The notes under the pieces were generated by a model. That model worked only from the letters and a program-made list of their open reading frames with translations, was not told the origin of the DNA and searched no databases. This document shows, piece by piece, positions 311 to 39,200 of a DNA stretch of 42,826 bases (within the stretch, counting starts at the first letter, position 1; each line of letters begins with the position of its first letter). Origin of the DNA: Bacteroidaceae bacterium (GTDB taxonomy: Bacteria > Bacteroidota > Bacteroidia > Bacteroidales > Bacteroidaceae); contig JAFUHF010000009.1 of assembly GCA_017468985.1 (NCBI GenBank), positions 1 to 42,826 of the forward strand, written 5' to 3'. A program made the translations under genes and the position numbers.

Positions 311-342
311 TTTGTATTGCTCTCAACTTTCCGTAACTTTGC
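311..342 (+). promoter_or_regulatory. Bacteroidetes promoter of the haem-c propeller lipoprotein gene
   Basis: TTTG at 311-314 and TAACTTTGC at 334-342 are separated by 19 bases, matching the -33/-7 pattern of Bacteroidetes primary sigma promoters. Transcription would start near 349. This excludes the upstream in-frame TTG at 317 and points to the ATG at 371 as the gene start. Confidence 0.7.
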
Positions 343-370
343 CAAAAGTTCTAAAGTTACAATAAAACAT

Positions 371-1807
371 ATGACCCTATTCACAAAGCTTGCGGCCTGC
401 GGCCTGCTGACTCTGCTCATGGGCTGCAGCTATGGCGACGCGCGCGACAAGGCCACTGAAAAGGCCCCCATCTTTCCAGACTATACGGACGTTACCGTGC
501 CGGCCAACATAGCTCCACTGAATTTTAGCATCAGCGGAGCCAAACATCTGAAAGCTACCCTAACCGGCACCAACGGCGAAGAACTTAAGCTCAAGGGGAG
601 CGACTACATTGACATTCCGCTGAAAAAATGGCACGAACTTACAGCACACAACCAAGGCAAGAGCATCAGCGTGAGCCTGCAAGCCTGGACCGAAGACCAT
701 CCAGAGGGGGTAAGCTACCCGGCTTTCCAGATCCACATTGACGCAGAACCCATTGACGACTATGCCGTTTACCGCCTCATTCCGCCCGGCTACGAAGAAT
801 GGAACAAAATGGGCATCTATCAGCGCAACCTCACCGACTTTACCCAAACCTGCATTGTGGAAAACCGACAGAACAACAAAGGCTGCGTAAATTGCCACAA
901 CTTTGCATGGTATAACCCCGAACGCATGATGTTTCACGCTAGAGGAAAGGGTGGTGGCACCATTGTGACCGACGGAGGGACCATTCAGAAAATAGACCTT
1001 CCCAGCCTTGGGCCCCATAAGGGTGGCACGTATCCCATGTGGCATCCTTCGGGTAACTACATCATCTTTTCTTCAAACAAGACGCGCCAGTCGTTCTACA
1101 CGCACTGTTACGACAAGATTGAAGTATACGACCTGGAGTCGGATCTGATACTCTACGATGCCAAACGCCAAACGGTGACCACCGACGAAAGGTTTACCGA
1201 CTCCATCAACTGGGAAACCTTTCCGGCCTTCTCGCCCGACGGGAAGTATCTCTACTTCTGCACGGCAAAGGCCAAAGCCATGCCCATGGAGACGGGCCAG
1301 CTCAAGTATTCGCTCGTAAGGGTGCCGTTCGACGAGGAAACGGGCCAGCTGGGCGAACCGATAGACACCATCTACAGCGCCGACCGACAGGGAGGGAGCG
1401 TTTCGGTGCCCAGAATTTCGCCCGACGGACGCTATGTGCTCTTCACCTGGGCGTCGTGTGCCACGTTCCACATTCAGCACAAGGAAGCCGACCTGCACCT
1501 CATCGATCTGGCTACGAATGAAGAGATCGTTCCCGACAACGTAAACAGCGACGAAACGGACAGCTACCACGCCTGGAGCAGTAACGGAAGATGGGTGCTC
1601 TTTGCCTCCCGACGCCTCGACGGTCGCTATACGCGCCTGTTTATAGCCCCCTTCAAAGACGGACAGTTTGGCAAGCCCTTCCTGTTGCCGCAGCGCGACC
1701 CCAAGCAGAACGAATTGCTGCTGTTCTCCTACAACGTGCCCGAACTGGCCAAGGGAAAGGTCAACCTGCCAAGCGACCAGCTGGCCGAAATGTTCAACGT
1801 AGACTAA
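371..1807 (+). CDS. Lipoprotein with CxxCH haem-c motif and PD40/TolB-like propeller (copy 1)
   Basis: This 478-residue protein starts at ATG 371; an upstream TTG at 317 lies inside the promoter. The N-terminus is a lipoprotein signal, with lipobox LMGC and lipidation Cys19, so it should sit in the periplasm or on a membrane face. A single c-type haem motif CVNCH occupies residues 172-176, followed shortly by MMFHARG, whose Met or His could be the distal ligand. The remainder carries repeated beta-propeller blades of the PD40/TolB type, seen as WHPSGNYIIFSS, FSPDGKYLYF, ISPDGRYVLF and WSSNGRWVLFASRR. It ends with an LPQRDP...SYNVPE block shared with the paralogue at 13068-14603. The pairing of one haem with a propeller suggests an electron-transfer or sensing role tied to the downstream membrane protein. 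That role is inferred; the family has no function I know of. Confidence 0.85.
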   Translation: MTLFTKLAACGLLTLLMGCSYGDARDKATEKAPIFPDYTDVTVPANIAPLNFSISGAKHLKATLTGTNGEELKLKGSDYIDIPLKKWHELTAHNQGKSISVSLQAWTEDHPEGVSYPAFQIHIDAEPIDDYAVYRLIPPGYEEWNKMGIYQRNLTDFTQTCIVENRQNNKGCVNCHNFAWYNPERMMFHARGKGGGTIVTDGGTIQKIDLPSLGPHKGGTYPMWHPSGNYIIFSSNKTRQSFYTHCYDKIEVYDLESDLILYDAKRQTVTTDERFTDSINWETFPAFSPDGKYLYFCTAKAKAMPMETGQLKYSLVRVPFDEETGQLGEPIDTIYSADRQGGSVSVPRISPDGRYVLFTWASCATFHIQHKEADLHLIDLATNEEIVPDNVNSDETDSYHAWSSNGRWVLFASRRLDGRYTRLFIAPFKDGQFGKPFLLPQRDPKQNELLLFSYNVPELAKGKVNLPSDQLAEMFNVD

Positions 1808-1822
1808 CCACATTTGACTGCA

Positions 1823-3559
1823 ATGCTTAAACGAAACATACTGACCTGTGTGATTTTCTTCGTTGCCATCACGGCAACCTTCACCATCGTTATGCCCGAA
1901 TCGCTGCGCCAGATGGAAGCAGCCGACTTCTTCGTTTGGGACAAGGACTTCTTCCTCGGAAAACTCTCGGAAGCCCCAGGCTTTTCGTCATGGCTGAACA
2001 ACTGCTTGCAGCAGTACTTCGGCATTCCCCTCGTGGGCATGATGATTGAAGCCCTGATCCTGACGCTTTGCGGCCTGATGTGCGGTCTGCTGCCCTGGGC
2101 GCTTGGACGCAAGGGCTACAGCGAATGGGGCATTCTGTTTCCCCTCGTGCTGATGATTGTCATTCCGTTCAACATGGAGGTTTACCTCGAAGCACTCTTC
2201 TTCTTCACAGCATTGGTGGCCGGTTTCCGCATACACCACCAGTGGGTTACGGCTGCAGGACTGATAGTGCTCGCGGTAGTGGGATTCTTCCTGATGAGCA
2301 CCACGCTGCTCATGCTCGCCATTGTGCTGATTGCCGTAGCCTACATGCTGCGCAGGCGCAGCATTGCCGTGGGAGTGGCCGCCGCAGTGGCCCTGGCCGT
2401 GGTGGTAGGCATGGTGAAATGGTCGAACACCCACTTAGGCTTCATTCCCTTCAATCAGCGCTACTTCTACGCACCGGTGCGCATAGGCAATGTGTGGCTC
2501 TACCTGCTGCTATACGTGTGCATCATTGCCCTGATGCTCCTTCCGCGCAAGGAGGGAGGAAAATGGCTCGGACGCCTGGCCTTCACCCTGAGCCTTGCAG
2601 CCATTGCCGCAGGAGCGGCCTATGGCGTGAGCAATCAGAACATGAGGTTTACGGAACGTTTCTATAAACTGCAAAACTTAGCTGAAAACAAGGAGTGGCG
2701 AGAGCTGCTGGACAAAATACCCTACGGCGAGATGCAGGAAAACAAGATGAACCTGTGCTACTCACTGCTGGCAGAATCGGCCACGGGAACGCTCACGAAC
2801 AATATCTTCTACTACCCCATCATGAACCCCGAAGACTACTTGTTCCGGCACGAAACGAAGAAATACAGCTGCATGTTCAACCGGCTGTTTTATGATAACC
2901 TCGGACTCTACGACGAAGCCTTCCGCATGGCCTTTGAATACGCCGTGATGACGCCCGAAGGCATGTGCTTCGGATCCATGCGACAGATGATCCACTATGC
3001 CATCCTGTCGGGAGACTGGAAAGTGGCAGAGAAATATCTTGAAATTCTGGACCACACCAGCTGCAACAAGGGCTTTGTGGAACAAGAGCGCCAACTGATG
3101 GCCAACAGCAAGCCCCTTCCACAACGCGATATCATGAGAGACACTTACGTAAACCTCTATCCCATCAATTCTGAGATGATTCGCCAGCTGGACTATAATC
3201 CCAACAATCAGAAAGCACTGGACTACCTGCTGCTCGGCCTGCTTTTGCAAAAAGAGGTGCAGAAGTTTGCCATTATCATTGAGGGTATCGAATATTACCA
3301 AGGTAAACAACTGCCAAGAGCCTATGCCGAAGCCATGGCCATGCTGTCGTCGGACCCCAACTACAAGTATCTGCACGACAAATTCAAATATTCTAACGAA
3401 TTAGACAAGCAGTTTCTGGAGTTTCTGAAAAAGAAACAGGCTGGAGCTACAGCGCAGCAGATGGCCTCCTATATGGGCTCCTACTGGTTCTACTTCTTCT
3501 ACATCCAGCAGCACACCGGCCCCACTCCCCCTGCGGCAGCCAGCAAAATAGTGAACTGA
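1823..3559 (+). CDS. DUF6057-like polytopic membrane protein (copy 1)
   Basis: This 578-residue protein starts at ATG 1823, 15 bases after the lipoprotein gene; an in-frame TTG at 1814 is less likely. The first 270 residues contain about eight hydrophobic segments (roughly 5-23, 68-95, 103-137, 142-198, 223-240, 251-267). The last 300 residues are soluble, probably helical and TPR-like. Its paralogue at 14616-16229 has the same layout: an N-terminal WDKDFF/AFDKLL region, the membrane block, the helical tail, and an aromatic C-terminal motif (SYWFYFF here, FYPFYYFF there). I assign it to the DUF6057 group from memory of Bacteroidales gene neighbourhoods. No catalytic motif is visible. Coupling to the haem-c lipoprotein in both loci suggests that the two proteins form a membrane complex. 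Confidence 0.75.
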   Translation: MLKRNILTCVIFFVAITATFTIVMPESLRQMEAADFFVWDKDFFLGKLSEAPGFSSWLNNCLQQYFGIPLVGMMIEALILTLCGLMCGLLPWALGRKGYSEWGILFPLVLMIVIPFNMEVYLEALFFFTALVAGFRIHHQWVTAAGLIVLAVVGFFLMSTTLLMLAIVLIAVAYMLRRRSIAVGVAAAVALAVVVGMVKWSNTHLGFIPFNQRYFYAPVRIGNVWLYLLLYVCIIALMLLPRKEGGKWLGRLAFTLSLAAIAAGAAYGVSNQNMRFTERFYKLQNLAENKEWRELLDKIPYGEMQENKMNLCYSLLAESATGTLTNNIFYYPIMNPEDYLFRHETKKYSCMFNRLFYDNLGLYDEAFRMAFEYAVMTPEGMCFGSMRQMIHYAILSGDWKVAEKYLEILDHTSCNKGFVEQERQLMANSKPLPQRDIMRDTYVNLYPINSEMIRQLDYNPNNQKALDYLLLGLLLQKEVQKFAIIIEGIEYYQGKQLPRAYAEAMAMLSSDPNYKYLHDKFKYSNELDKQFLEFLKKKQAGATAQQMASYMGSYWFYFFYIQQHTGPTPPAAASKIVN

Positions 3560-12296: not shown

Positions 12297-13058
12297 TCAT
12301 TTTTCTCCCAGCCAATCATCTATGAGCATACGTGCCATGCTCAGCTTCTCGGGAATGGCAGGCATCTTGTCACGGTGGAACCACCCTCCCTTGCGCAGTT
12401 CTTCCCGTTGCAGCTGCAGCGTACCGCTTTTCCATTGTGCCGTAAAGCCTAACATCAAACCCCGAGGATATGGCCACGGCTGACTTCCGAAATAACGCAA
12501 TTTGGTAATTTCCATACCGGTTTCCTCTTTTACTTCTCTCCTTACGCATTCCTCCAGACTTTCTCCCGTTTCCACGAAACCGGCTATCAGCCCGTAATAA
12601 TCACGCTTAAACGTATTCGACTGCACCAGCAATATTTCGTCGCCACGCGTAATTCTCACAATGATGGCAGGCGACAAAGTGGGCCAAATCTCGCGACCAC
12701 AATGTTCGCACTGCTTGCTGATGGGGGTGGTGTAACGAAGAGGGTGTCCACAATGTCCACAATAGAGGGTGGACAAATGCCAATGCAGCAGCTCAGCAGC
12801 TTTTCCGGCCCACTGGTAAGCCTCGGCATCCAGGCATTGAAAGCTTGCCCTCAGCCCCATACGGTCATATCCTGAAGGAACTACTGTAAGATCTGCCACT
12901 TCCAGAGCCTTTGCCCTGTCACTGTTTATCAGCGGCAGTTCAATGACTTCTTTTTCATTACCGAATGGCAGCATCTCCTGTTGAGGCAACTTCCACCGGC
13001 CGTCTGACGTGCGTTGCAGGTAGATGTCGCCCTTTGTAAAAAGGAACCAATAGGTCAT
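12297..13058 (-). CDS. nudC: NudC-type NAD+ diphosphatase (Nudix hydrolase)
   Basis: This 253-residue protein has the NudC layout: an N-terminal domain, a zinc ribbon with two cysteine pairs (CGHCGHPL and CEHCGREI), and a Nudix box at about residues 158-180 (GFVETGESLEECVRREVKEETG). The SQPWPYPRGLMLGF motif after the box is diagnostic for NADH pyrophosphatases of this type. The family hydrolyses NAD(H) to NMN(H) and AMP and removes NAD caps from RNA. It is the last gene of the CotH/DUF6057/haem-c lipoprotein operon, only 9 bases behind the lipoprotein gene. That placement looks opportunistic unless it proves conserved. Confidence 0.93.
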   Translation of the reverse strand: MTYWFLFTKGDIYLQRTSDGRWKLPQQEMLPFGNEKEVIELPLINSDRAKALEVADLTVVPSGYDRMGLRASFQCLDAEAYQWAGKAAELLHWHLSTLYCGHCGHPLRYTTPISKQCEHCGREIWPTLSPAIIVRITRGDEILLVQSNTFKRDYYGLIAGFVETGESLEECVRREVKEETGMEITKLRYFGSQPWPYPRGLMLGFTAQWKSGTLQLQREELRKGGWFHRDKMPAIPEKLSMARMLIDDWLGEK

Positions 13059-13067
13059 CTCTGTTTC

Positions 13068-14603
13068 TTATTGATATTGTGGCCTTATTTCTTTGTAACT
13101 CACCTGCAAGCCGTTCTGCTCATAAATGGCCTGACGGAACTGTTCAAACGAATAGGGCACTTCATTCTTTGAAAATTCCGGCACATTATAGCTCTTGAAA
13201 AGCAACTGATTGTGCTCTGGGTCACGCTGTGGCAACATGAAAGCCTTGTGAGCCTTTCCCGTGTGGTCAAAGTAAGCAATGTAGGCACGCGTAAACGAAC
13301 CGTCATCGCGCCTGCTGCTGAAAGCTATCCATCGGCCGTTACTGCTCCATGAATGATAGGCATCCACATCATTGCTGTTGGCCGCTGTAAGCGGATATAC
13401 ATCTCCCGTCTGCGTATCTTTCACATAGAGGTCTGCACTTTTATGCCAGATGTGGAACTGACCATAATCCCCCATGGTGAACAACACGTAGCGTCCGTCG
13501 GGGCTCACACGTGGAACGGAAGCACTCTTTCCCAGTTCTGAACAAGCAAACTCTACCTCCGGCTCCCCAAAGGTTTCTGTGGCCTCGTCGAAAGGAATAC
13601 TCATCAGATCATACTTCACGTTCATGTAGTTAAACACTACTTCGCGTGAACGAAGCGAGTCGGGAATGTCGCGAAACGAGGGCATATGGGTCACGCAGTA
13701 ATATATGCGATCGCCCTGCGGATTCCAGCAGGGAAACGTCTCCAGGTCATAGGGTGTTCGAATGATGTTGCACAGCTCGTGGGTATCGGCATTATAGAAA
13801 ATGAGATCCGAACTATTGTCAACTACTTCTATCTTCTCCTTATTCAATAAATGGAAGGTCTGCCCCGTCTTGTTTGACGAGAACACCACCCAGTTCTTCC
13901 GAGCATGCCACGAGGGATAAACGGCAAGACTCAGTATGGAGTCATTCTTCATGTTGATTTTCTCCACTTTTCCGTCCTTGGCAATGAGTGTGCCTCCCAT
14001 GTTGCCTCTCACATGAAAAAGCATGGTCGAAGCATCATGGTTTTTATAGTTGTGACAGTTCACGCAATGATTCTCTCCGTCATGAAACTTTCTGTTGTTT
14101 TCGTAAATGGTTTTCTGGTCGTAGGTGGTCAGGTTGCGCTGATAGAGTCCAAGCTGACGATAAAGTTCATAGCCGGGTTCTATCAGTCTGTACGACAAAT
14201 AAGCATCCACGGGCTCCTCTGCCACAGTCAGCCGATATGCAGGAAAGGCCTTCCACTTCCCTTCTTGACGAACATAGGCCTTCACCTCTATGTCTTTTCC
14301 CCTGGCAGCATTCATCAGGCTTCTCCACTCCACACTGTCCATCATCACCTTGCCGTCTTTGCCAGCACCTGTCAGCAATGAAGCGTCACCACACTTCATT
14401 GCCACCACGTATGCTTCACCCTGATTGCGAAACATGAAATTCATCGGTGCTATGTTGGGAGGAATAACGACATCCGTATAGTCTGGGAATAAGGCCAGCT
14501 GCTCCGTTGCAGCCTCCACATTAGTGGGAACTTCGTAATGTGCCTTCCGGCATGAAGCCAGCAGCACAGTTACTATGGTCAATGATAGGATGAATGATTT
14601 CAT
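13068..14603 (-). CDS. Lipoprotein with CxxCH haem-c motif and PD40/TolB-like propeller (copy 2)
   Basis: This 511-residue lipoprotein has a lipobox LASC with lipidation Cys18. It is clearly paralogous to the protein at 371-1807: FPDYTDVVIPPNIAPMNF matches FPDYTDVTVPANIAPLNF, and the RDPEHNQLLFKSYNVPE block matches near the C-terminus. The haem motif CVNCH is at residues 180-184, followed by MLFHVRG as in copy 1, which strengthens the case for a real haem site. Propeller blades are seen in YPSWHARKNWVVFSSNKTG, VSPDGRYVLFTMGDYG and WSSNGRWIAFSSRRDDG. It is third in a minus-strand operon after CotH and DUF6057 genes, 12 bases behind the latter. The proposed role is a haem-bearing partner of the DUF6057 protein, by inference. 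Confidence 0.85.
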   Translation of the reverse strand: MKSFILSLTIVTVLLASCRKAHYEVPTNVEAATEQLALFPDYTDVVIPPNIAPMNFMFRNQGEAYVVAMKCGDASLLTGAGKDGKVMMDSVEWRSLMNAARGKDIEVKAYVRQEGKWKAFPAYRLTVAEEPVDAYLSYRLIEPGYELYRQLGLYQRNLTTYDQKTIYENNRKFHDGENHCVNCHNYKNHDASTMLFHVRGNMGGTLIAKDGKVEKINMKNDSILSLAVYPSWHARKNWVVFSSNKTGQTFHLLNKEKIEVVDNSSDLIFYNADTHELCNIIRTPYDLETFPCWNPQGDRIYYCVTHMPSFRDIPDSLRSREVVFNYMNVKYDLMSIPFDEATETFGEPEVEFACSELGKSASVPRVSPDGRYVLFTMGDYGQFHIWHKSADLYVKDTQTGDVYPLTAANSNDVDAYHSWSSNGRWIAFSSRRDDGSFTRAYIAYFDHTGKAHKAFMLPQRDPEHNQLLFKSYNVPEFSKNEVPYSFEQFRQAIYEQNGLQVSYKEIRPQYQ

Positions 14604-14615
14604 AGGGTTTCGTGA

Positions 14616-16229
14616 TCAATTTACGCCAGCTGATTCTTTTTTTGGAGCTATATAATTATCGTCCGGTATGTTCTGGAAAAAATAATAGAATGGATAAAAT
14701 CCCCCATAATGCGGAGCCAAGTCATAATATACTTTCTTCCTGTCTTGCCCCTTATACTTCACGGCTTCCTGCAGAAATCCGTTGATGGTCTGCTTCACAT
14801 AGGGAGCGATCTGAAACTGACCAGACACATCTTTCTCTTTCATGGAGTAGAACACGATGGCTTCCTCAAATGTCTTCGCCAGAGGCTGACCGCGCAAGGG
14901 CTGCGTGCGCATATAGAAGCTGCCCAGGTCTTTGGCATAGAGGCATGCTGCCAAAGAATTGACCAGCGCACGATAGCTCCTGCCTGAAGTGAGCATTACA
15001 TTATAGCCAATAAACAAAGGCGTCTTGTACCATTGCTCAAACGTATCTTCCGTTGGCATAAGCTCCTTTACCTTACTGAGGTTCACATCCGATGTCACTA
15101 AATCCAGATTGTCCACGTAGGGTGCATATCTTTTCACAAAGCTTTGCTCAAAGGGCATTTTGGATATCATGTGCAGATATTTGTCGGCCAATGCAGGTTC
15201 TTCATTCAGCAAGGCACACAGAAACATTCTTTTCAGAAGGAACACACGCGGTCCGTCTATCACGGCACGCTCCATGCATTCGTGATAGGCCGTATTGACC
15301 AACCCTGCATAGAAATCGCCATCAGCAGTATAGTATTCGGTTGACAGGTCCACCTTTCCTGAGCGGTTGTGCAGGTGCAGGTTGGGGTACTGATAGTGTA
15401 TGTCGAAGAGCTTTGTAGCAATCTGGTCTGTTTGCGACAAGGCGATAGCATAGAAACAGCAAACAGCACGATTGGGCTGTTTCACCTTCGAGGCCACGTC
15501 TATCATTTTCTCCCACTCTTCTTGCTCCATCAGGCGATTCATCTTGGCTGTGGCCCGAGTATTCTCATGGAAGGGGATAGTATAAACCATCAGACCCACA
15601 AAGAGCAACAGCTCTGCGGCAATTACCACTGCATTCTGCCGCACCGCTCCTTTGCCTTCGTCTTTCTGCTCACTGAGCACTTTTTTTTTCGAAAAGAGGT
15701 ATTTAAATATTGCGGCCAGCCCCAACAGCACGAAGACCATCACGGGATAAGCCAGCACCAATCCGGGTTCTTCGTTAAAGTAGAGGTTCAATCCCTTACT
15801 CACCAACCATCCTAAATAGGAAAACACCAATACCACGGGTATCAGCTGCGCATAGCCTTTTAGCGATAGCGCTTTGATCATCAACCAAGCCGACACAGCC
15901 AAAAGAGCCGCCAGCAAGAAGCCGCCAAAAAGCGGATAGTGGAAAAAGAGCAACAGCAGGCGACCGGTCAGAATCACATAGCCATCGTTCATGTCAAGCA
16001 CATACTTCATCAGTAGCTTGTCGAAGGCAAAATAGCTATTCTGCTCCGCCATGTAGAACATGTCGGCATAGACCAAGCCTACAAAAAGCCAGACCAATGC
16101 CAGCAGGAGCCAAATGAACGACACTTTGCCCATCAACCGCATCAGCTGGTTGCCAATGGAATTTTTCTTCTGCTCTGCAGCTTTTGTCATGGAACGCTTG
16201 CCCTTGGATTTTTGCATTGACGGTTTCAT
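14616..16229 (-). CDS. DUF6057-like polytopic membrane protein (copy 2)
   Basis: This 537-residue protein starts directly after the CotH stop (TAA then ATG), although internal ATGs such as 16190 are possible. A basic N-terminal tail (KSKGKRS) precedes about six hydrophobic segments in residues 38-225. The first loop (AEQNSYFAFDKLLMKYV) corresponds to the same loop of copy 1. The soluble C-terminal half has short helical repeats, such as EEWEKMIDVASKVKQPNRAV, resembling TPR units. The tail FYPFYYFFQNIPDD matches the aromatic end of copy 1. No enzymatic motif is evident. Genetic linkage to the haem-c lipoprotein in both copies argues for a two-component membrane assembly. Confidence 0.75.
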   Translation of the reverse strand: MKPSMQKSKGKRSMTKAAEQKKNSIGNQLMRLMGKVSFIWLLLALVWLFVGLVYADMFYMAEQNSYFAFDKLLMKYVLDMNDGYVILTGRLLLLFFHYPLFGGFLLAALLAVSAWLMIKALSLKGYAQLIPVVLVFSYLGWLVSKGLNLYFNEEPGLVLAYPVMVFVLLGLAAIFKYLFSKKKVLSEQKDEGKGAVRQNAVVIAAELLLFVGLMVYTIPFHENTRATAKMNRLMEQEEWEKMIDVASKVKQPNRAVCCFYAIALSQTDQIATKLFDIHYQYPNLHLHNRSGKVDLSTEYYTADGDFYAGLVNTAYHECMERAVIDGPRVFLLKRMFLCALLNEEPALADKYLHMISKMPFEQSFVKRYAPYVDNLDLVTSDVNLSKVKELMPTEDTFEQWYKTPLFIGYNVMLTSGRSYRALVNSLAACLYAKDLGSFYMRTQPLRGQPLAKTFEEAIVFYSMKEKDVSGQFQIAPYVKQTINGFLQEAVKYKGQDRKKVYYDLAPHYGGFYPFYYFFQNIPDDNYIAPKKESAGVN

Positions 16230-19187
16230 TTATCTTACCACTACCTTCTTATTGTTAACTACATAAACTCCCGGCGTGAAATGTTCCAATCGCGTTACGC
16301 CTTCGGCCTGCATTTTGTCATAAAGCAGGATGCCTTGCAGGGAGTATACCTTCAGGTGCTGTGGGGCCGTAAGGTGAACCACAATGCACCCTTTGCCTCC
16401 TGTCACGCCTACATAGCTGTTTTCCACCCTCTCTACTCCGTCGGGTACCACATAGCCGTACTGCTGATCCAATGCCTGCAGGCGATCCGTGAGCCACTGG
16501 TCAAGATAGGTGATTTCATTGTCAAAGTTCATGGTGATATCATCAGAACCCTGCCAGCGATCTATCTCACGCTGATCGGCACCGCTATCTTTAAATAAAT
16601 TACGGTAGTCCTTGAAACGGTTCAAGAGGCTGTAGTGACTGAAATGTGTTTTTCTCAACTCTGCATAGCGCGAAGCCAATCGGTTGTTCCACAATCGGTA
16701 ATTATACTCTTTCAAGCGCTTGAAGAGAGTATATTCACCATGCTCATAAGCCCAAAGGAAACTGATGAAGTCCTGCTTGGCATTGCTCACGAGATTAGTC
16801 CGTCCGTCCCACCGGCGACCAAACACACCGTCAAGGTCCCATGGGGCTACGCCCAACTTGTTAAACCGCGTGGCGTCGTAGTTGTAGAGATACATGTTCT
16901 TTCCATGATTGTCGGTGGCAAGCATCAGCTCTATGAATAGATAATAATCCATAAATACCGGAATATCGAAATAGTCACCCACATGGGCTATGAAGTTCGT
17001 CTTATTCTCTGAAGCCACTACGTTTACAGCCCTGTAAAGAGGTCCCCAGTCAATGGGTTCACCGTCGTCTAAGTCAGGATATTTCAACTCCCACGATTCC
17101 CAGGTGTCACGCAGGTTGTTGTAGCTATCAGCAAGTTTCATGGGATACGTGCGCTGGTTGGACTCATGACCAAGGAAGGTTTCATAGGTCCACTCTGATG
17201 ACTTATAGAGCAATCCGCGAATAGTGTCAGACTGCCCTGCACCGTCTGCCGTCTTGAACTTCTTCAACTTGAGCTGCTTGCGATCCACCTTCTCGGTCAT
17301 GCAGTAGAGGCCGGCATACTGACCATTGAGCAGCACCTCTACGAATTTTCCACGTGTGGCATTGATGGCCTTCTTTTCGTACTCTTTCTGATAAGGTGCC
17401 GTAGAGAAGTCGTTCCAAAGGTCTGTGGCCACTCGGTTACGCATTCTGCCACCATCTACAGCCATTGCGTCAAGAATCCAATTGTTGTCATTTCTCAGTC
17501 CGAGGAGCGTACGGTCAATAGAGTTGCCGGCAGCATCCTTGAGCTTTATGGCATAGGCTTTTTTCTGCTTGCTGCGCGCCGTAGCTCCACGATAGCGAAA
17601 ATTGGCATGATAGAGTGAATCTACGGGAGCAATCGTACCTGGATCGTTCACACGAAGATAGCCTGCGTGGTAAGTCGAACTGAAATTATTTCCCATGATT
17701 TCCACGATGGGCAGGAACGTAAAGGTGAGACGTCCCTTACCCTGTACCTTGCCATTATATAATAAGGAGATGACATGCTCATTGCCTCCACCAATATTTT
17801 TAAAGGTATATACGCCACCATTCTTCACCTCTTTACCGTCGATCTGCAAGGTATAGTCGTCACGGGTTGCCGCAACATAGCGTATCTCAGCAGGCATGCG
17901 CTTGTCAGCGCGGAACCTTTCGGGAACCGACATCATGTAACGCTTATAGAGCTTGTCGTAGACCACAGTCTTATTGTTAATAAAGAAGCTGTCCATCACA
18001 GAGGTTAAATCCTGATCACCATTAGTGGTACCGGCATCGGGCACAAAAACGCCCTGAGTAGCCAGCAGCTGCTGATGGCGCACATCTGATGAATAAAACA
18101 TGAAAGTGGAACCGGCATCCAGCGAATAGTAGCAGAGCCCCGTCTGATAATAGTCGTTCCAGTAGGTTCGGCCCTTCCATACATAGCTATTGTCAGCACT
18201 ATTGGCCTCGCAGCTCTCCACCGAAATGCCATAGCCTGCATTGCCTGAAGTAGTATGTTCCAAGCTCCAGGTATTGTCGCTCGCAGCGGTTTCGCCAGCC
18301 AAGCACTTAATGGCATCAGGTCCATCGGCCCCGATGTAGCCGCTTACATAGTAGCCAGCGTCAGTATAGATATTTACGCCGTCGGAACCCTCGATGAAGT
18401 AGAATCGGGTGATTTGCTCCTCGCTCTGATCCAGGCTATGGCCAGTTTCGTTAAAATGCACATACTTTCCCGATCTCACGTTTTTGATATAATAGTAAAT
18501 GGGATCGCTCTTGTCTACAGTGTAGACCACAGGCTGGCGCAATCCGTAATTCTCCCAATAGTAGCCATCAAGCGTGGTGCCTGAGAGGGAGGCATTTCGC
18601 TCTTGAGGAGTGTAAAGGTCGCCATTCTCGTCGTAGAAATAAAACTGCTGGTTATCTGTCTGCGCCTCACCAAAGGTGCCCACCACATAGGATGACCGGA
18701 CGTTGAAGTATTTCTGGTCCACATCCATCACGCAGGCTATCTGATAGTTTCCACTACCGGTTGAAATCACGGTCCATAATGAGGAATCGCCCCTCACTTC
18801 GTCCGTAATACAAACATATCGGTTATAACTGCCAGAGTAGATGCCATCATACGTAATGAAGCCTCCCGTAGAGGCATTGCGAATGGTGAACTGTCCGGGT
18901 GAAACCTCATGGAAGTACCAGAATTGGTCCTCATAGGAATCGGATGTAGTTATATAGTAAAGGGCTGTTTGTGTGTTGTGTATTGTGCCCAGAGCCAAGC
19001 CACCGCGACCATACTGCCGACATACGATTCTGTATTTCACGTTAGGATTGAAGGTCAGTACGGCATGGGCCGTGGGAAGAAAGCCCCACATCATCACCAT
19101 GGCCAGCACCATCCATCTGATCCAACATAAAGCCAGAGCTTCGGGTCTCGCGTTCGGTTTCATATCTTGAGTGATTACCTTCATCAT
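16230..19187 (-). CDS. Secreted CotH-kinase domain protein with T9SS-type sorting domain
   Basis: This 985-residue protein has a signal peptide ending TAHA. The N-terminal 370 residues show repeated RICIN/lectin-like blocks (YRIVCRQYGRGG, YYYIKNVRSGKYVHF). The CotH kinase domain spans about 500-870, with RGKFVEVLLNGQYAGLYCMTEKVDR around residues 610-636 and the metal-site motif PWDLDGVFGRRWDGR near 782-796. The last 50 residues (LKVYSLQGILLYDK, FTPGVYVVNNKKVVVR) look like a type A T9SS sorting signal. Characterised CotH proteins phosphorylate secreted proteins. Here the product is probably exported and displayed at the surface. It is first in the operon with DUF6057, haem-c lipoprotein and nudC. 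ATG 19187 is used; a second Met at 19163 is possible. Confidence 0.88.
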   Translation of the reverse strand: MMKVITQDMKPNARPEALALCWIRWMVLAMVMMWGFLPTAHAVLTFNPNVKYRIVCRQYGRGGLALGTIHNTQTALYYITTSDSYEDQFWYFHEVSPGQFTIRNASTGGFITYDGIYSGSYNRYVCITDEVRGDSSLWTVISTGSGNYQIACVMDVDQKYFNVRSSYVVGTFGEAQTDNQQFYFYDENGDLYTPQERNASLSGTTLDGYYWENYGLRQPVVYTVDKSDPIYYYIKNVRSGKYVHFNETGHSLDQSEEQITRFYFIEGSDGVNIYTDAGYYVSGYIGADGPDAIKCLAGETAASDNTWSLEHTTSGNAGYGISVESCEANSADNSYVWKGRTYWNDYYQTGLCYYSLDAGSTFMFYSSDVRHQQLLATQGVFVPDAGTTNGDQDLTSVMDSFFINNKTVVYDKLYKRYMMSVPERFRADKRMPAEIRYVAATRDDYTLQIDGKEVKNGGVYTFKNIGGGNEHVISLLYNGKVQGKGRLTFTFLPIVEIMGNNFSSTYHAGYLRVNDPGTIAPVDSLYHANFRYRGATARSKQKKAYAIKLKDAAGNSIDRTLLGLRNDNNWILDAMAVDGGRMRNRVATDLWNDFSTAPYQKEYEKKAINATRGKFVEVLLNGQYAGLYCMTEKVDRKQLKLKKFKTADGAGQSDTIRGLLYKSSEWTYETFLGHESNQRTYPMKLADSYNNLRDTWESWELKYPDLDDGEPIDWGPLYRAVNVVASENKTNFIAHVGDYFDIPVFMDYYLFIELMLATDNHGKNMYLYNYDATRFNKLGVAPWDLDGVFGRRWDGRTNLVSNAKQDFISFLWAYEHGEYTLFKRLKEYNYRLWNNRLASRYAELRKTHFSHYSLLNRFKDYRNLFKDSGADQREIDRWQGSDDITMNFDNEITYLDQWLTDRLQALDQQYGYVVPDGVERVENSYVGVTGGKGCIVVHLTAPQHLKVYSLQGILLYDKMQAEGVTRLEHFTPGVYVVNNKKVVVR

Positions 19188-19214
19188 TTAAAAGCATATT
19201 TGATGATAAAACGC

Positions 19215-19223
19215 GCAAATATA
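19215..19223 (-). promoter_or_regulatory. -7 box of the CotH operon promoter
   Basis: TATATTTGC on the minus strand (19223-19215) fits the Bacteroidetes -7 consensus and lies 28 bases upstream of the CotH start. The -33 element is poor (a TTT-rich stretch), so activation by an extra factor is possible. The tandem repeat array begins about 50 bases further upstream. Confidence 0.5.
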
Positions 19224-19274
19224 CAGAAAAAGAACGAAACGTAAAGTATCATCTAAAAGTTTAACACAATTGGC

Positions 19275-19618
19275 TACGTGGAATTTTTCAAGATCGGCCG
19301 TGGGAATCCCAATTTCCACGTTCCAAAATCAAGATTCGGTCACGGACATGCCAATTTACACGTGTAAAAATCATGATTCCGTCGCGGACATGTCAATTTG
19401 CACGTGTAAAAATCAAGATTCGGTCACGGAACCCCAAATTAGCACGTGTAAAAATCATGATTCCGTCGCAGACATGCCAATTTACACATGTAAAAATCAA
19501 GATTCCGTCGCGGACATGCCAATTTACACGTGTAAAAATCAAGATTCGGTCACGGAACCCCAAATTAGCACGTGTAAAAATCAAGATTCGGTCACAGACA
19601 TGCCAATTTACACGTGTA
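19275..19618. repeat. Tandem array of eight 42-bp units with CACGTG palindromes
   Basis: Eight units of exactly 42 bp run from 19275 to 19610, ending with a partial unit CACGTGTA. Most units begin CACGTGTAAAAATCA; the first two are diverged. Units at 19401 and 19527 are identical, and the triplets 19359-19484 and 19485-19610 correspond unit by unit, so the array grew by a 126-bp duplication. At junctions such as 19355-19368 and 19523-19536 the perfect palindrome TTTACACGTGTAAA forms. Because 42 is divisible by 3, long open frames appear on both strands, but none has coding character. The array sits between the divergent CotH and serS promoters. Confidence 0.95.
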
Positions 19619-19637
19619 TGGGAATGTCATACTTATG

Positions 19638-19710
19638 TCCGGAGGAGTAAACCTGAAAATACTTCGTCTTTCCTTTTCCCTTGTCACTCGTTTACTCGTA
19701 ACTTTTCATA
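19638..19710 (+). repeat. Promoter-proximal repeat, copy with degraded -7 box
   Basis: The block AAACCTGAAAATACTTCG followed by TCTTT and ending CTCGTAACTTTTC is repeated about 80 bases later at 19723-19795, where it ends in a functional TAACTTTGC box. Here the -7 box reads TAACTTTTC, one base off. It looks like a tandem duplication of the serS promoter region in which the upstream copy has decayed. Confidence 0.6.
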
Positions 19711-28993: not shown

Positions 28994-31987
28994 ATGAATT
29001 CCCAGCGCCACTTCCTCTCATCAGCCCTCCTACATTGTGCTGAAGCCCTGATGATCCTCATTATGCTTGGCATGACCACCCTTCCCATACATGCCGAAAA
29101 AGCCGACAGTATCAGTATCCACGGTAACGTAAAAGACGACTTCACAATGCAAAGCTTAGAAGGCGCCATTATCACCTTCATGTTTCCCGACAGTACCATA
29201 GCAAAGGTTGACTCCACAGGCAAATCCATTCATCAGTCAATGGGAGGCCTTACCGTTTTTGGCAGAGGCGGTTACTATAGCTCCAAACTGCCATCCACAG
29301 GAACCTACATTGCCAAGGTGGAAATGAAAGGCTACGAAACCGGATACTTCAACATCCACATTCCGGTCAAGAAGTACATGAAGAAGGTACGCAGCTGGGA
29401 CGCAGACTTTCAAATCAAAAAGAAGCAGAAAATAAAAACCGTCAACCTGAGCGAAGCCCGTGTCAAGGCCACACGAATCAAAATGGTAATGAAAGGTGAC
29501 ACGCTGGTCTACAATGCCGATGCATTTCAAGTGAGTGACGGTTCCATGCTCGACAAACTCATTGCCGCCATGCCTGGATTCAAGGTTGAAAAGGATGGCA
29601 ACATCACCCACAATGGACAACACGTAGAAGAACTGCTCGTCAACGGTAAGGAATTCTTCAAGGGCAATCCCAAGATAGCTCTCGAAAACCTCCCTGCCTA
29701 CACGGTAGACAACGTGAAAGTATACCGCAAAACACCACCCGATGCAGAGATGCTCCGCGACACCATGGAGATCAACCGGCTGAAACGTCTGGTGGTTGAC
29801 ATCAGGCTGAAACGACAGTACAGCCAAGGCTGGTTCGTCAACAGCGAACTGGCCGGTGGCACGCACGACCGTTACTTGGGCCGCATCTTCGGTCTGCGCT
29901 ATACTGATCACTCCAAACTCTTCCTGTTTGGAAACATGAACAACCTGAGTGACGAACAGCGGCCCGACGCCGATGGTATTCTCAAAAAGGAGCACCTGCC
30001 AAGTGGCATTACAAAGGTGAAGATGGGCGGTCTTAACCTGAACTTGAGCGACAAGAAGACCAATGCCGAATACAATGGTTCCTTCACCGCCAAGCACGAG
30101 CGCACTACTGACGAACAAATATCTTCCTCTGTAAACTATTACGAAGGCGGCGACACCCATGATCGCTATCGCAGTCTAAATCAGGACAAACACATAAACC
30201 TAAAGTTCGATAATTCATTTTATTATCCCGTCAGCAATCGCTTTTCCATGGGTTTCAGACCTGACGCCAATTATCAACGCACGGAATCATCCGGCTTTAG
30301 TCGCAGTGCCACCTTCAATCAGATGCCAAGCGAATCGTCGCACAGTGCCAGCATTGACAGCCTCTTCTCTCCATCAGGAAGCCCTCTGCTCAACCAGATG
30401 CTCATCAACAGAATGAGCCAAGAAAATGCAGGCACGTATAAGAATTTCTCAACCAACGCCTATGGATGGCTCTACCTTCGCACCCCATTGCTTGACAATA
30501 CCCTACAGGTCAACTACGGTCTGAACTACCAGAACAATGAAAATACGGCCTACTCGCGCTCCGACCTGCGACAGCAACTCAGTGGCGAACGCGACTTCCG
30601 CCATCAGCAGGTACTCACTCCCTCACGCCACTACGATTTCAATGTTCACAGCACCTACAGTTGGAACTTCAGCCGACTGAAGCACACTCATTTCTATATA
30701 GGCTACTCCATCAACCAGCAGTTCGATCGTGGTCATAGAGACCTCTACCGCTTCGACCGTCTGCCCATGTATTCCACCGACAGCATGGCACTCAACGCCT
30801 TACCCTCCACACGCGATGAAATGCTTACCGCCTTCGACTGGCAGAATTCCTTCCACACCGTAACGCGTAGCCATGCCCACGAAATACAGTTCAAGATAAA
30901 CCAGAAAATATCGAAGAAAACAGGTGACCTTACTCTCACCTTGCCACTCAACATGGTCACCCACACCATCAGCGACCAACGCAACCATAATCAGGAACAC
31001 AAGAGCCGATACCTGCGTTCTGTCATGCCCGACCTTTCGCTCAATGCCTTCGATATAGGTAACAATGGTAAAACACACTATCACATCATCAATTACAGTC
31101 TGCGCTGTCAGGTGCCCGACATGAACAACCTCCTCGACATCACAGACGACAGCAATCCGCTCATCATCCGCAGAGGTAATCCTCTGCTAAAGAACTCTAC
31201 CGTTCACAACCTTACAGCCTACCTCGTTAACGGCAACACCAAGCACCAGAAAACCTTTCAGTTGAGTGGTAACTGGACCTTAAGAAAGAATGCCGTTGCT
31301 CAAGCGTGCACTTACAATCGGTTAACGGGCGTCTCCACCTACCTGCCGCGCAACATCAACGGAAACTGGTATGCATCCATACAGATCATGAAGCAGCAAA
31401 CCGTAGATTCCCTCGACCGCGTTCTGCTGAAGAACACATTCAGCATAGACCTCTCCAACAGCTCCGACTACATCTCTGAACGGAGCGGAGAAGTGACCGA
31501 GCCCTATCGCAGCAGTATCCGCCAAACCAACGTTAGCGAAGAACTGAGTGCCATGTATACCATCAAGCAAACCACGCTGCGTCTCTATGGAGACATCAAT
31601 TGGCAACGCCTCAGCAGCCACCGTGAAGACTTCAACAAGACGAATGCCTTTCAGTTCAGTTACGGACTGCAAACCGACCTGCCACTGCTTTGGGACGTTT
31701 CGCTTTCGAGCAACATCGCCATGCACAGCCGCAGAGGCTACAGCGACAAGCACCTGAACGACGACAACCTAATCTGGAATGCCAGTCTCACGCGCAGTTT
31801 CCTTAAGGGAAAACGGCTCACCGCCAAGCTGGAGGGCGTAGATCTGCTCCATCAGCTCGACAATGTACGCTCCTACATGAATGCACAAGGCAGGACGGAA
31901 ACCTGGTACAACACCATCCCCAGTTACCTCATGTTCCACCTTTACTACAAGCTTCACATCCAGCCCAAGAAAAAGGAAGAACAATAA
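28994..31987 (+). CDS. TonB-receptor-like outer-membrane beta-barrel protein (copy 2)
   Basis: This 997-residue protein has a signal peptide ending LPIHA, a carboxypeptidase-regulatory-like domain (SIHGNVKDDFTMQSLEGAII and onwards), a plug-like region around residues 165-250 (GDTLVYNADAF, GSMLDKLIAAMPG, NGKEFFKGN, LENLPAYTV) and a long beta-barrel with tandem aromatic strands. It is a clear paralogue of 5993-8935: the plug blocks align almost residue for residue, and both end in a basic KPKKE/QPKKKE tail. No SusD partner is present. Only 4 bases separate it from the single-helix gene, so it is translated from the BlaI-controlled transcript. Its ligand or role is unknown. Confidence 0.85.
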   Translation: MNSQRHFLSSALLHCAEALMILIMLGMTTLPIHAEKADSISIHGNVKDDFTMQSLEGAIITFMFPDSTIAKVDSTGKSIHQSMGGLTVFGRGGYYSSKLPSTGTYIAKVEMKGYETGYFNIHIPVKKYMKKVRSWDADFQIKKKQKIKTVNLSEARVKATRIKMVMKGDTLVYNADAFQVSDGSMLDKLIAAMPGFKVEKDGNITHNGQHVEELLVNGKEFFKGNPKIALENLPAYTVDNVKVYRKTPPDAEMLRDTMEINRLKRLVVDIRLKRQYSQGWFVNSELAGGTHDRYLGRIFGLRYTDHSKLFLFGNMNNLSDEQRPDADGILKKEHLPSGITKVKMGGLNLNLSDKKTNAEYNGSFTAKHERTTDEQISSSVNYYEGGDTHDRYRSLNQDKHINLKFDNSFYYPVSNRFSMGFRPDANYQRTESSGFSRSATFNQMPSESSHSASIDSLFSPSGSPLLNQMLINRMSQENAGTYKNFSTNAYGWLYLRTPLLDNTLQVNYGLNYQNNENTAYSRSDLRQQLSGERDFRHQQVLTPSRHYDFNVHSTYSWNFSRLKHTHFYIGYSINQQFDRGHRDLYRFDRLPMYSTDSMALNALPSTRDEMLTAFDWQNSFHTVTRSHAHEIQFKINQKISKKTGDLTLTLPLNMVTHTISDQRNHNQEHKSRYLRSVMPDLSLNAFDIGNNGKTHYHIINYSLRCQVPDMNNLLDITDDSNPLIIRRGNPLLKNSTVHNLTAYLVNGNTKHQKTFQLSGNWTLRKNAVAQACTYNRLTGVSTYLPRNINGNWYASIQIMKQQTVDSLDRVLLKNTFSIDLSNSSDYISERSGEVTEPYRSSIRQTNVSEELSAMYTIKQTTLRLYGDINWQRLSSHREDFNKTNAFQFSYGLQTDLPLLWDVSLSSNIAMHSRRGYSDKHLNDDNLIWNASLTRSFLKGKRLTAKLEGVDLLHQLDNVRSYMNAQGRTETWYNTIPSYLMFHLYYKLHIQPKKKEEQ

Positions 31988-36279: not shown

Positions 36280-39200
36280 ATGAACATGCGTCACAAGTTC
36301 ATCATCCCCCTTCTGTTCATTATGTTTTCATTCGGAAATAACGCAACAGCTCAAACCTATGCTTCGCTATGGAAGGAAGTGGAAACTGCTCAGCAAAAAG
36401 ACCTTCCCCAACAAGCACTTAAAAGCATTGACCAGCTCATTCGTCAGGCCATCGCCAAAGAAGATGGCGGATGGCTGCTCAAAGGTCTGCTCTACCGCAG
36501 GCAACTGTCATACGACATTTCCCCCGACAGTGCCGCCGTCATCATACCTCGATTGGAACACCTTCTGGAACAACAACCGTCAGCGGAGATGACATCGTTG
36601 CTGCATCTCACGCTGGGCGTTCTCTATAAAAACGAAAATGCCACACTCTATGAAGACGCCCCGAAGCAAGCCGTAGCCCACTTCAGGCAATCCATGGAGT
36701 CGCCCCCCCTGCTGGCCAAGGCCCAAGCCGAAAAGTACATACCATTCGTCGTTAAAGGCTCTGACAGCAAGCTCTATGGCCATGACCTACTCAGCATCGT
36801 AGCTACACAAGCCGCCGATGAACTTTGCTCCATGAATGCAGAACCACTGCAAACACATGACCTTGGGCTCCAGTTGCTGCAAGAGGCCATTGACACCTAT
36901 CAGCAACAAGGCAACCACGAAGCCGTGCTAATGATGAAACTCAAGCAAACAGAACTCAGCCAAACATGGGGCGAGAAAAGAAAAGCCGCCTATCAGCAGC
37001 TCATTCAGGAATATGGAGATCTTCCCCTCATCACCGACGCTTACCTCCACTTGGCAGAAGAAATGGGTAATGCAGGAAAGGAGGCCTATCTCACACTGAT
37101 GGAAGGCATCGACCGCCATCCAAAGGGAAAGCGCACCAATTTACTGAGAAACAGAATAAAGTCTATCACTCAGCCTCGTCTATCACTTTCATTGGAACGG
37201 AAGCAGGCCTACACGGGACAAGAAGTCTCTATGAACATTCAAGCCCTCAATGTGACAAAAGCCCACCTGCGCTTCTATCGTTCCAGCCTCACAGCCGAAT
37301 CGGAGACCCTGCGCAACCTGAATCAAGAGAAATTGAAGGATTTGGCCAAGCAGACAGCCTTGGACATTCCCCTGCAAATTGCCAAGGGCGAACCTTATGA
37401 AGAAATTAAAACAACAGCTAAACTGAATGCCCCACAGAAGGGCATATACATCGTTGCCTTAGAGGGAGAACATGTGAAATCATCCTATGAGCTTTTCTAC
37501 GTATCAGATCTTCACATTATGCAACTTCCCCTTCAGGGACAAAGCAGCCGCGTGGTAGTCAGTGAAGCCCAGAGCGGTAAACCCGTTGCCGGAACCAAAG
37601 TCACGGTAAGGACTAACGACAGAAACCGCAGAATCATACAAGCCCTGATTACCGACGAAAAAGGTGAGGCCATACTCAAGGAAGAACCTTCGGCCAACAA
37701 GATTCTGTTCGCCGTAAAAGACAATGACGCCTATTGCCTGCCGCTGCAAGTTCATCGCCTCTACGGCAACGGCACTGAGCGCACCACCCTCATCAAGACT
37801 CTGTCACTATATACCGACCGTGCCATCTATCGCCCTGGTCAAAAGGTGAAAGTAGGTGGATTCAATTACTCCAAACAGGAGGACCAACTTTCAGTGATCG
37901 CTGGCGACAGCATTTCGCTTCGTCTGCTGGATGCCAACCGAAAGGAAATAGGAAAGCTACAGGTGGTCACCGATGCTTTTGGTACGATTGGAGCCGAGTT
38001 TGACTTACCATCCTCGTGCCTTAACGGACAATTCTGCATTCAGGGAAATAATGGTTCCGTATACTTCAGAGTAGAACAATACAAACGCCCCACCTTTACC
38101 GTTACCTTCGACGCTCCGGCCATGGCCTATCAGGCTGGAGACACGGTACGCCTCACAGGAACCGTAAAGACCTATGCCGGTTTCCCACTGCAAAACACCA
38201 GAGTGGCCATCAACGTCAGCCGACGCTATTCACCCTGGTGCTACACCTTCTATGGGCAACCCAAACAAATGGCAAGCGACACGCTAAACACCGATGCCGA
38301 TGGAAAGTTTTCGATTCCTGTCTACCTTGACATTCAGGATCAGGAGGCCGAACAACTCAATAAATCCCAATTTCCACGATTCTACATTTTCGAAACAGAA
38401 GCCGTAGCTACTTCCGAAAACGGGGAGAGTGAAACGGGGAGTTACAGACTCTTTGCCGGCAACAAGCCCTCATTCCTTTCCACCACACTGCCTTCACGTC
38501 TATGCAAGGAAAATGCTTCATCCTTCCAGGTCAACCAACTGAACGCTGGAGGTCAACCCTTGGATGGACAAGCCTACTACGAAATAGCCCTAGGCAGCGA
38601 AGTCAAGGCTTCCGGCCAATGGCCGTTTAATCAGCAGATGTCTCCCAGCATTTTCGACCCATTACCCTCCAATGAATACACCCTTCGAATATGGACCAAT
38701 GCCGAGAAGCGTAACAGTGCCGAATTGGAACATCGCTTTGCTCTCTTTTCGCTGAGTGACACAAAACCCGTAGGCAATGAGCCTCTGCAGATATACCAAA
38801 CATCCGACCAATTCAGTGCAGGACAAGTACAAATGCTGATGGCCACTCCGGTTCAAGATGCCTATATCCACTACGATCTGTTCTCACAAACCGAGCATTT
38901 GGAAAACCGCATCATCCCCATGTCCGACTCTGCCTTGACTAAAGTTTATAGCTATAAAGAAGACTATGGCAATGGCCTGCAAGTCGTTATCGCATTCGTG
39001 AAAGAAGGACAGATGCATACGCAATCTGTAACCATTAGGAAGCCCATTCCCAATAAGCAACTGTCACTACGCTGGAAAGTGTTCCGTGATCGGTTACACC
39101 CAGGACAGAACGAAACGTGGACCCTGCAAGTGCTCCGCGAAGGCAAACCGACCGAAGCATCGCTCATGGCCACGCTCTACGACGCCTCCTTGGATAAGTT

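What the first reader, a model, noticed from the sequence alone, without database searches (positions are those of the whole stretch)
12297..19223. Operon pairing a surface-exported CotH kinase with a DUF6057 membrane protein and a haem-c propeller lipoprotein
Four tightly spaced genes (gaps of 0-12 bases) encode a CotH-kinase protein with a T9SS-like sorting tail, a polytopic DUF6057 protein, a lipoprotein carrying one CVNCH haem-c motif plus a PD40 propeller, and NudC. Seen in the sequence: motifs and spacing. Known: CotH proteins phosphorylate secreted proteins; a lone CxxCH usually binds one c-type haem. Inferred: a membrane complex with a redox or haem-sensing lipoprotein that serves an extracellular kinase. 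I know of no described function for this combination.
Basis: partly seen in the sequence, partly recalled or inferred. Interest (0 to 1): 0.75.

Follow-up and report, generated by a model that had tools for sequence, protein, structure and literature searches.

The report
Conserved haem lipoprotein–membrane protein pair
Two neighbouring genes, one for a probably haem-carrying propeller lipoprotein and one for a membrane protein of unknown function (DUF6057), travel together through gut bacteria of the Bacteroidota, while the kinase gene beside them here is a partner in only some lineages.

Summary
The four genes are at the stated coordinates, on the minus strand, with gaps of 0, 12 and 9 bases. 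The strongly conserved unit is only the middle two. DUF6057 and the CxNCH/PD40 lipoprotein are same-strand neighbours in 78 of 80 named loci and 88 of 93 genes from one GTDB family (4 genes are in both sets), and in two genomes that share only the phylum. A second such pair lies in the same window (317-3559) and a third on another contig. CxxCH is present in 191 of 191 distinct full-length lipoprotein genes, with Asn at the third place in 190.
CotH is not a general partner: it is the next gene upstream in 2 of 93 (3 with L192) and 3 of 80. Yet the four best relatives of this CotH in 19 genomes of the genus all sit beside the pair. In sister lineages an M60-type peptidase often holds that place. 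NudC follows in 10 of 20 genus loci.
Best reading: an envelope complex of a mono-haem c propeller lipoprotein with a polytopic membrane protein; CotH is a lineage-specific partner.

The parts
14616..16229 (-). DUF6057 protein (537 aa): polytopic N-terminal half, soluble C-terminal half that looks TPR-like by eye; first conserved partner
   Evidence: PF19529 1.3e-49; five hydrophobic segments within residues 29-222 by hydropathy
13068..14603 (-). Lipoprotein (511 aa): lipobox C18, N-terminal region, single C180-V-N-C183-H184 haem-c motif, PD40 propeller; second conserved partner
   Evidence: CxxCH in 191 of 191 distinct full-length genes
16230..19187 (-). CotH-family protein (985 aa): hydrophobic N-terminal segment, ricin-type lectin domain, CotH domain 531-906 with D759NHGKN and P782WDLD, T9SS-like C-terminal tail (by eye); lineage-specific partner
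   Evidence: next gene upstream of DUF6057 in 4 same-genus loci and in L048, L062, L072; L192 about 0.9 kb upstream
12297..13058 (-). NudC-type NAD(+) diphosphatase (253 aa); genus-level neighbour
   Evidence: NF001299 1.3e-68; downstream of the lipoprotein in 10 of 20 same-genus loci, 2 of 93 in the family sample
317..1807 (+). Second haem-propeller lipoprotein (496 aa from TTG at 317; the script starts it at the ATG at 371), CVNCH, 40% identical to the 13068 protein
1814..3559 (+). Second DUF6057 protein (581 aa), downstream of its lipoprotein (reversed order)
   Evidence: PF19529 1.5e-63

Best explanation
The conserved unit is a two-gene envelope module. The DUF6057 protein spans a membrane, most likely the inner one, and offers a helical-repeat (probably TPR-like) domain. 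The lipoprotein carries one covalently bound haem c, attached by the CcsBA system, next to a beta-propeller. The two proteins act as one complex. The haem motif is invariant and no second His or Met is fully invariant, so I think a ligand-binding or redox-sensing haem is more likely than a plain electron carrier. Genomes keep several such pairs, in differing neighbourhoods. In this lineage one pair has a secreted CotH kinase as a neighbour; in sister lineages the same pair often has an M60-type peptidase there. Shown: pair linkage, motif conservation, CotH/M60 alternation, CcsBA-like gene in the genome. Inferred: haem attachment, complex formation, ligand sensing, any control of the secreted neighbour.
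For: DUF6057 is adjacent on the same strand in 78 of 80 named loci, 77 upstream and 1 downstream; the other 2 lie near contig edges. It is adjacent on the same strand in 88 of 93 genes of 38 genomes, and in 3 more on the other strand. DUF-to-lipoprotein gap: median 5 bases, 70 of 78 at most 50. The pair occurs in two genomes related only at phylum level, with DUF E=3e-48 and 5.1e-54. CxxCH is in 191 of 191 distinct full-length lipoprotein genes, C-x-N-C-H in 190, exactly one motif each; H184 is invariant, H197 185 and H387 187 of 191 (212 ORF rows). Own genome: 760-aa CcsBA-like protein (PF01578 1.9e-34, ResB 4.7e-21) beside a di-haem oxidoreductase ORF. Distant relative L126 joins lipoprotein, CANCH, propeller and TPRs in one chain. 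Six full-length CotH relatives beside the pair share DNHGKN...WDLD with the window's.
Against: G040, rated 99% complete, has four lipoprotein matches but no CcsBA-like hit; it has 140 contigs, so a gap is possible. G070 and G076 also lack one, and several genus members have only shortened or weak matches. The link between lipoprotein and PF01578 across 61 genomes is weak (34 of 38 against 16 of 23, Fisher p=0.08). No Pfam cytochrome domain matched in 27 members. TPR likeness of DUF6057 is by eye and E=0.2 in the PDB search. Short DUF6057 relatives (363-387 aa) have no lipoprotein beside them in the four stretches read. L188 is a lipoprotein without DUF6057 next door. H197 or H387 could be a second axial ligand in most members.
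Confidence: 0.6

Rival explanations
1. The haem lipoprotein-DUF6057 complex is a dedicated helper (secretion, maturation or redox control) of large T9SS-exported proteins, and CotH and M60 are alternative clients.
For: In 34 P0002-like loci with a readable upstream gene, 19 have an M60-type peptidase and 3 a CotH there. All 19 M60-type proteins and 2 of the 3 CotHs match my tail pattern; both kinds have ricin-type N-termini (the M60 one below Pfam's cut-off). The four best P0004 relatives in 19 genomes all lie by the pair.
Against: 12 of those 34 have other genes there. In the P0005-like loci no gene next upstream matches the tail pattern. CotH is next upstream in 2 of 93 (3 with L192) in the family survey. 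Six of seven CotH genes of the own genome are not near a pair. The related loci share ancestry, so the 19 are not independent. The tails match no curated sorting model in P0004.
Confidence: 0.2
2. The lipoprotein is an ordinary electron-transfer cytochrome c linking an inner-membrane redox step to the periplasm; DUF6057 is only an anchor.
For: Mono-haem motif; CcsBA-like gene and a di-haem oxidoreductase ORF in the genome. H197, 13 residues after the motif His, is in 185 of 191 genes and could be the sixth ligand.
Against: The two window DUF6057 proteins matched no redox-enzyme family in Pfam or NCBIfam. Several paralogues per genome in differing neighbourhoods do not fit one respiratory chain.
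Confidence: 0.2
3. The CxNCH does not bind haem; it holds another metal or a structural thiol pair, and the protein is a plain propeller scaffold.
For: G040 (99% complete) keeps the motif (L149, L152) without a detected CcsBA-like gene. Association with PF01578 is weak. No cytochrome domain model matched.
Against: CxxCH including the His is invariant in 191 of 191 genes. The own genome has a CcsBA-like gene, and 16 of 19 genomes of the genus have at least a partial match.
Confidence: 0.12
4. Plain gene adjacency: CotH and NudC are passengers with no functional tie to the pair (this can hold together with the best explanation of the pair).
For: CotH 2 of 93 (3 with L192), NudC 2 of 93 in the family sample; NudC in none of the 80 named loci.
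Against: Full-length P0004-type CotH keeps its place by the pair at 41-58% identity in several lineages; NudC keeps its place in 10 of 20 genus loci.
Confidence: 0.4

Closest known systems
Mono-haem c-type cytochromes matured by CcsBA (system II)
   Same: One CxxCH in an exported lipoprotein; CcsBA-like gene in the genome
   Different: No Pfam cytochrome-c domain matched in 27 members scanned at E<=0.1; the motif stands before a PD40 propeller; Asn at the third place in 190 of 191
Hydrazine synthase alpha subunit (PMC12607021, PMC12758564: passages seen)
   Same: A c-type haem in a large extracytoplasmic protein; a propeller domain in the alpha subunit is recalled only, the passages seen place a propeller in the beta subunit
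   Different: No PDB sequence match at E<=1; one haem here, two in the alpha subunit; the Tyr four places after the motif His, a haem ligand there, is Asn in P0002
TolB and other PD40 propeller proteins
   Same: PD40 repeats; after 2ojh (2.6e-04) the best PDB profile hits are TolB (from 1.4e-03)
   Different: Lipoprotein with a haem motif, no TolB equivalence (TIGR02800 34.8 bits against cut-off 343.15), partner DUF6057 (that TolB works with Pal is recalled)
CotH spore-coat kinases (PMC7821199: passages seen)
   Same: CotH domain with two conserved Asp motifs, D759 and D784 (25 apart); Asp228 and Asp251 (23 apart) are needed for activity in B. subtilis CotH
   Different: Large multidomain protein with ricin-type domain and T9SS-like tail
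PD40-TPR haem lipoproteins such as L126 (no named family found in Pfam or NCBIfam for the whole)
   Same: Lipoprotein, CANCH, propeller, related by sequence (profile E=1.4e-48)
   Different: TPR in the same chain; no DUF6057 hit in the 1.5-kb flanks held

Membership tests
c-type cytochrome | CxxCH haem-attachment motif in an exported protein | tested here: met
   CxxCH in 191 of 191 distinct full-length genes; Cys at the lipobox place in 190 of 191
c-type cytochrome | Haem c attachment machinery in the genome | tested here: met
   760-aa CcsBA-like protein, PF01578 and ResB over cut-off, TIGR03144 157.5 bits but below its cut-off of 187.6. No match in G040, G070, G076 of 19 genus genomes
c-type cytochrome | Covalent haem present | not testable with these tools
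   Needs purified protein
c-type cytochrome | Recognised cytochrome c domain (not required of every haem c protein) | tested here: not met
   No Pfam cytochrome domain in any of 27 members at E<=0.1; fold prediction switched off
DUF6057 (PF19529) | Profile match over the gathering score | tested here: met
   170 and 216.1 bits against 29.8
CotH kinase (PF08757) | CotH domain over cut-off | tested here: met
   155.8 bits against 23.8
CotH kinase (PF08757) | Two catalytic/metal Asp positions | tested here: inconclusive
   D759NHGKN and P782WDLD seen; equation with B. subtilis D228/D251 is by spacing only
T9SS cargo | Sorting-tail model match (PF18962; TIGR04183 recalled) | tested here: not met
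   None at E<=1 for P0004; likeness by eye only
T9SS cargo | T9SS in the organism | tested here: inconclusive
   SprA_N in 16 of 19 genus genomes, not in this incomplete assembly
Hydrazine synthase alpha | Sequence match to the solved complex | tested here: not met
   Not among PDB matches at E<=1
NudC NAD(+) diphosphatase | Equivalog model over cut-off | tested here: met
   231.3 against 158 bits

The most novel reading that the evidence does not exclude
The DUF6057-haem propeller pair is an unrecognised class of envelope haem or redox sensors of the Bacteroidota, multiplied into several copies per genome, and individual copies have recruited their own exported effector (here a CotH protein kinase, in sister lineages an M60-type peptidase), so that secreted phosphorylation would be gated by a haem signal.
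Probability: 0.15. Interest if true: 0.85.

Novelty: new variant of a known kind. Interest (0 to 1): 0.5.

Why it matters
Some Bacteroidota genomes carry up to seven matches (fragments included) to a lipoprotein with an invariant haem motif whose membrane partner has no assigned function and is named in no paper of the library searched. If the haem is real, this is a widespread envelope haem system, and the tight two-gene linkage makes it directly testable by deletion and haem staining. The CotH neighbour would give an exported bacterial kinase a candidate regulator.

Tried and rejected
Rejected: CotH-DUF6057-lipoprotein-NudC as a generally conserved four-gene operon (outer genes in 2 of 93 each, CotH 3 with L192). 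Rejected as shown: hydrazine synthase membership. Led nowhere: PDB profile of DUF6057 (best E=0.2); PF01578 co-occurrence (p=0.08). Paper searches with no hit: DUF6057, PD40 + cytochrome c + Bacteroides, CotH + Bacteroid + type IX secretion, WD40-like + c-type cytochrome + Bacteroidetes + lipoprotein. 'CotH kinase' + Bacteroidetes gave two papers, seen as listing only; CotH + protein kinase + spore coat gave 36, eight listed, one seen in passages; hydrazine synthase + beta-propeller + heme gave three, two seen in passages. My CotH motif pattern was wrongly written and matched nothing; it was rewritten, where it matched the seven full-length pair-linked CotHs (the window's included) and not the shorter pair-linked one, L138.

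Corrections: the notebook entry overstated same-strand (30 of 30) and upstream (78 of 80) counts, and that gives 363-388 aa; right are 29 of 30, 77 of 80 and 363-387. The 212 'distinct' full-length lipoproteins held the same gene twice in places (cut and whole); collapses them to 191 genes.

Rows dropped: of 97 lipoprotein genes (98 rows, two of them one gene), 4 were not fetched for (G006:C3, G006:C173, G019:C146, G024:C23); G006:C3 was seen beside DUF6057 (L024). Neighbour ORFs under 100 aa or 110 aa were ignored unless they matched a model. Second pairs within L060, L064, L073 and L114 are not counted in the 80.

Full report
What is there. The minus strand of 12297-19187 holds four ORFs: CotH (16230-19187), DUF6057 (14616-16229), a lipoprotein with one CVNCH and PD40 repeats (13068-14603) and NudC (12297-13058), with gaps of 0, 12 and 9 bases. 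The assembly (G000) has 2.17 Mb in 87 contigs and is 78.65% complete. A second lipoprotein-DUF6057 pair lies at 317-3559 on the plus strand in the reverse order; the two lipoproteins are 40% identical and both have CVNCH. A third pair lies on contig C3.

The conserved unit. Of the 30 best DUF6057 loci fetched from 61 genomes of the same GTDB family, 30 have the lipoprotein next door, 29 on the same strand (L028 is tail to tail). DUF6057 is adjacent on the same strand in 78, upstream in 77 and downstream in L068; L055 and L112 have under 1 kb of contig upstream. In the family sample 38 of 61 genomes have the lipoprotein. Of 97 genes I examined 93: DUF6057 is directly upstream in 78 and downstream in 10 on the same strand, next door on the other strand in 3 (L197, L229, L233), absent next door in L188, and one gene (L230) is cut by a contig end. 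Four genes are in both surveys. The median DUF-to-lipoprotein gap is 5 bases, 70 of 78 at most 50. The profile finds 30 of 247 genomes of the order (some are weak, propeller-only matches) and 5 of 295 of the class (one weak). In a phylum sample of 247 searched with the distant relative L126, two genomes listed as same phylum only (G395, G425) also carry the adjacent same-strand pair.

The haem motif. In 191 distinct full-length lipoprotein genes there is exactly one CxxCH each; 190 read C-x-N-C-H, the exception being L227 with Ser (212 ORF rows). C180, C183 and H184 are invariant. No other His is: H197 185 and H387 187 of 191; both are replaced in one gene, L175. From this I infer, without proof, that the distal site may be open or variable. 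The own genome has a CcsBA-like gene beside a di-haem oxidoreductase ORF. Against: G040, rated 99% complete, has four lipoprotein matches and no CcsBA-like hit; G070 and G076 also lack one; several other genus members have only shortened or weak matches. Across 61 genomes PF01578 is over its cut-off in 34 of 38 lipoprotein-positive and 16 of 23 negative genomes, p=0.08.

DUF6057. Hydropathy gives five segments in the window's protein, and 3 to 10 across 90 relatives, most often 7. The soluble half looks like helical repeats by eye; the only database support is weak (E=0.2 to a NatA auxiliary subunit, a TPR protein by recall). Distant lipoprotein relatives (L126, L242, L243, L247) carry the haem motif and match the propeller profile; TPRs are confirmed by Pfam in L126 and seen by eye in the other three. 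This hints that propeller and repeat domain work together, but TPRs are promiscuous. Short DUF6057 relatives (363-387 aa in four stretches) have no lipoprotein beside them; in three they follow a glgB-like ORF (L159 scanned, two by eye).

CotH and NudC. In the family survey CotH is the next gene upstream of the pair in 2 of 93, or 3 if an opposite 113-aa ORF in L192 is ignored, and NudC the next downstream in 2 of 93. In the named loci CotH is the next gene upstream in L048, L062 and L072 (gaps 150, 32, 578), 3 of 80, and no NudC match was found. In the genus, 20 P0002-like loci of 17 genomes were read: DUF6057 is upstream in 18, the other 2 being cut by contig ends; CotH is upstream in 4 of those 18 (L138's is shorter); NudC is downstream in 10 of 20 (L147 not readable). 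The reverse test, a genome-wide search with this CotH in 19 genomes, ranks first four genes (G000, G012, G076, G069) that all sit beside the pair; the next, in G012 and G000, do not. Full-length P0004-type CotHs by the pair (L139, L147, L192, L062, L072, L048) are 41-58% identical to it and have DNHGKN and WDLD; these loci were fetched around the pair, so this part is circular.

M60 alternation. Among 40 P0002-like named loci, 34 have a readable gene upstream of DUF6057: 19 M60-type peptidases, 3 CotH, 12 others; the rest are 5 edge cases and L068, whose order is reversed. The Pfam M60 match was run on one member, L073; the others are by clustering. On a quick tree (SH-aLRT only) the CotH loci fall in one part (support 88) with Alloprevotella rava and the own genus, the M60 loci in the other parts; the least number of changes is 4 for CotH and 10 or 11 for M60, edge loci counted as 'other'. 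Other neighbours differ: an S9-type peptidase after the lipoprotein (cluster of 9, by eye; Pfam on L078), a small DUF4369 lipoprotein before DUF6057 (cluster of 7; one scanned), fasciclin-like and SusC-like (by eye) genes.

Mechanism. I commit to an envelope complex of a mono-haem c propeller lipoprotein with a polytopic DUF6057 partner, with lineage-specific secreted neighbours. Linkage and motif are shown; haem, complex and function are inferred. CotH biology was seen as passages of PMC7821199, hydrazine synthase as passages of PMC12758564 and PMC12607021. DUF6057 is in no paper of the library.

Verdict.

Noticed in passing
window 317-3559: Second haem-propeller lipoprotein + DUF6057 pair in the same window, in reversed order and on the other strand.
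   Followed up: yes
L126:640-3048, L242, L243, L247: Distant relatives outside the order: C(A/G)NCH, propeller and TPR-like tail in one chain (TPR confirmed by Pfam for L126 only).
   Followed up: partly
L159:4103-5194, L160:4549-5706, L161:4605-5768, L162:4630-5784: Short DUF6057 relatives without a lipoprotein; in L159, L160 and L162 right behind a glgB-like ORF (L159 scanned, the others by eye).
   Followed up: partly
L227:3821-4384 and six more of that cluster: Small DUF4369-type lipoprotein (one member scanned) directly upstream of DUF6057 in seven pairs.
   Followed up: no
L078, L079, L080, L086, L108; cluster 4: DPP4-like S9 peptidase directly after the lipoprotein in several lineages (Pfam on L078 only).
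   Followed up: no
window 19270-19650; also L158:5223-5624: Short tandem-repeat-like stretches (repeated CKNQDSV / MDRSNLPLQICKTK when translated) beside unrelated genes.
   Followed up: no
window 28994-31987: 997-aa ORF without any Pfam match at E<=0.1.
   Followed up: no
window 36280-41865: Bacterial alpha-2-macroglobulin-like protein (1861 aa).
   Followed up: no
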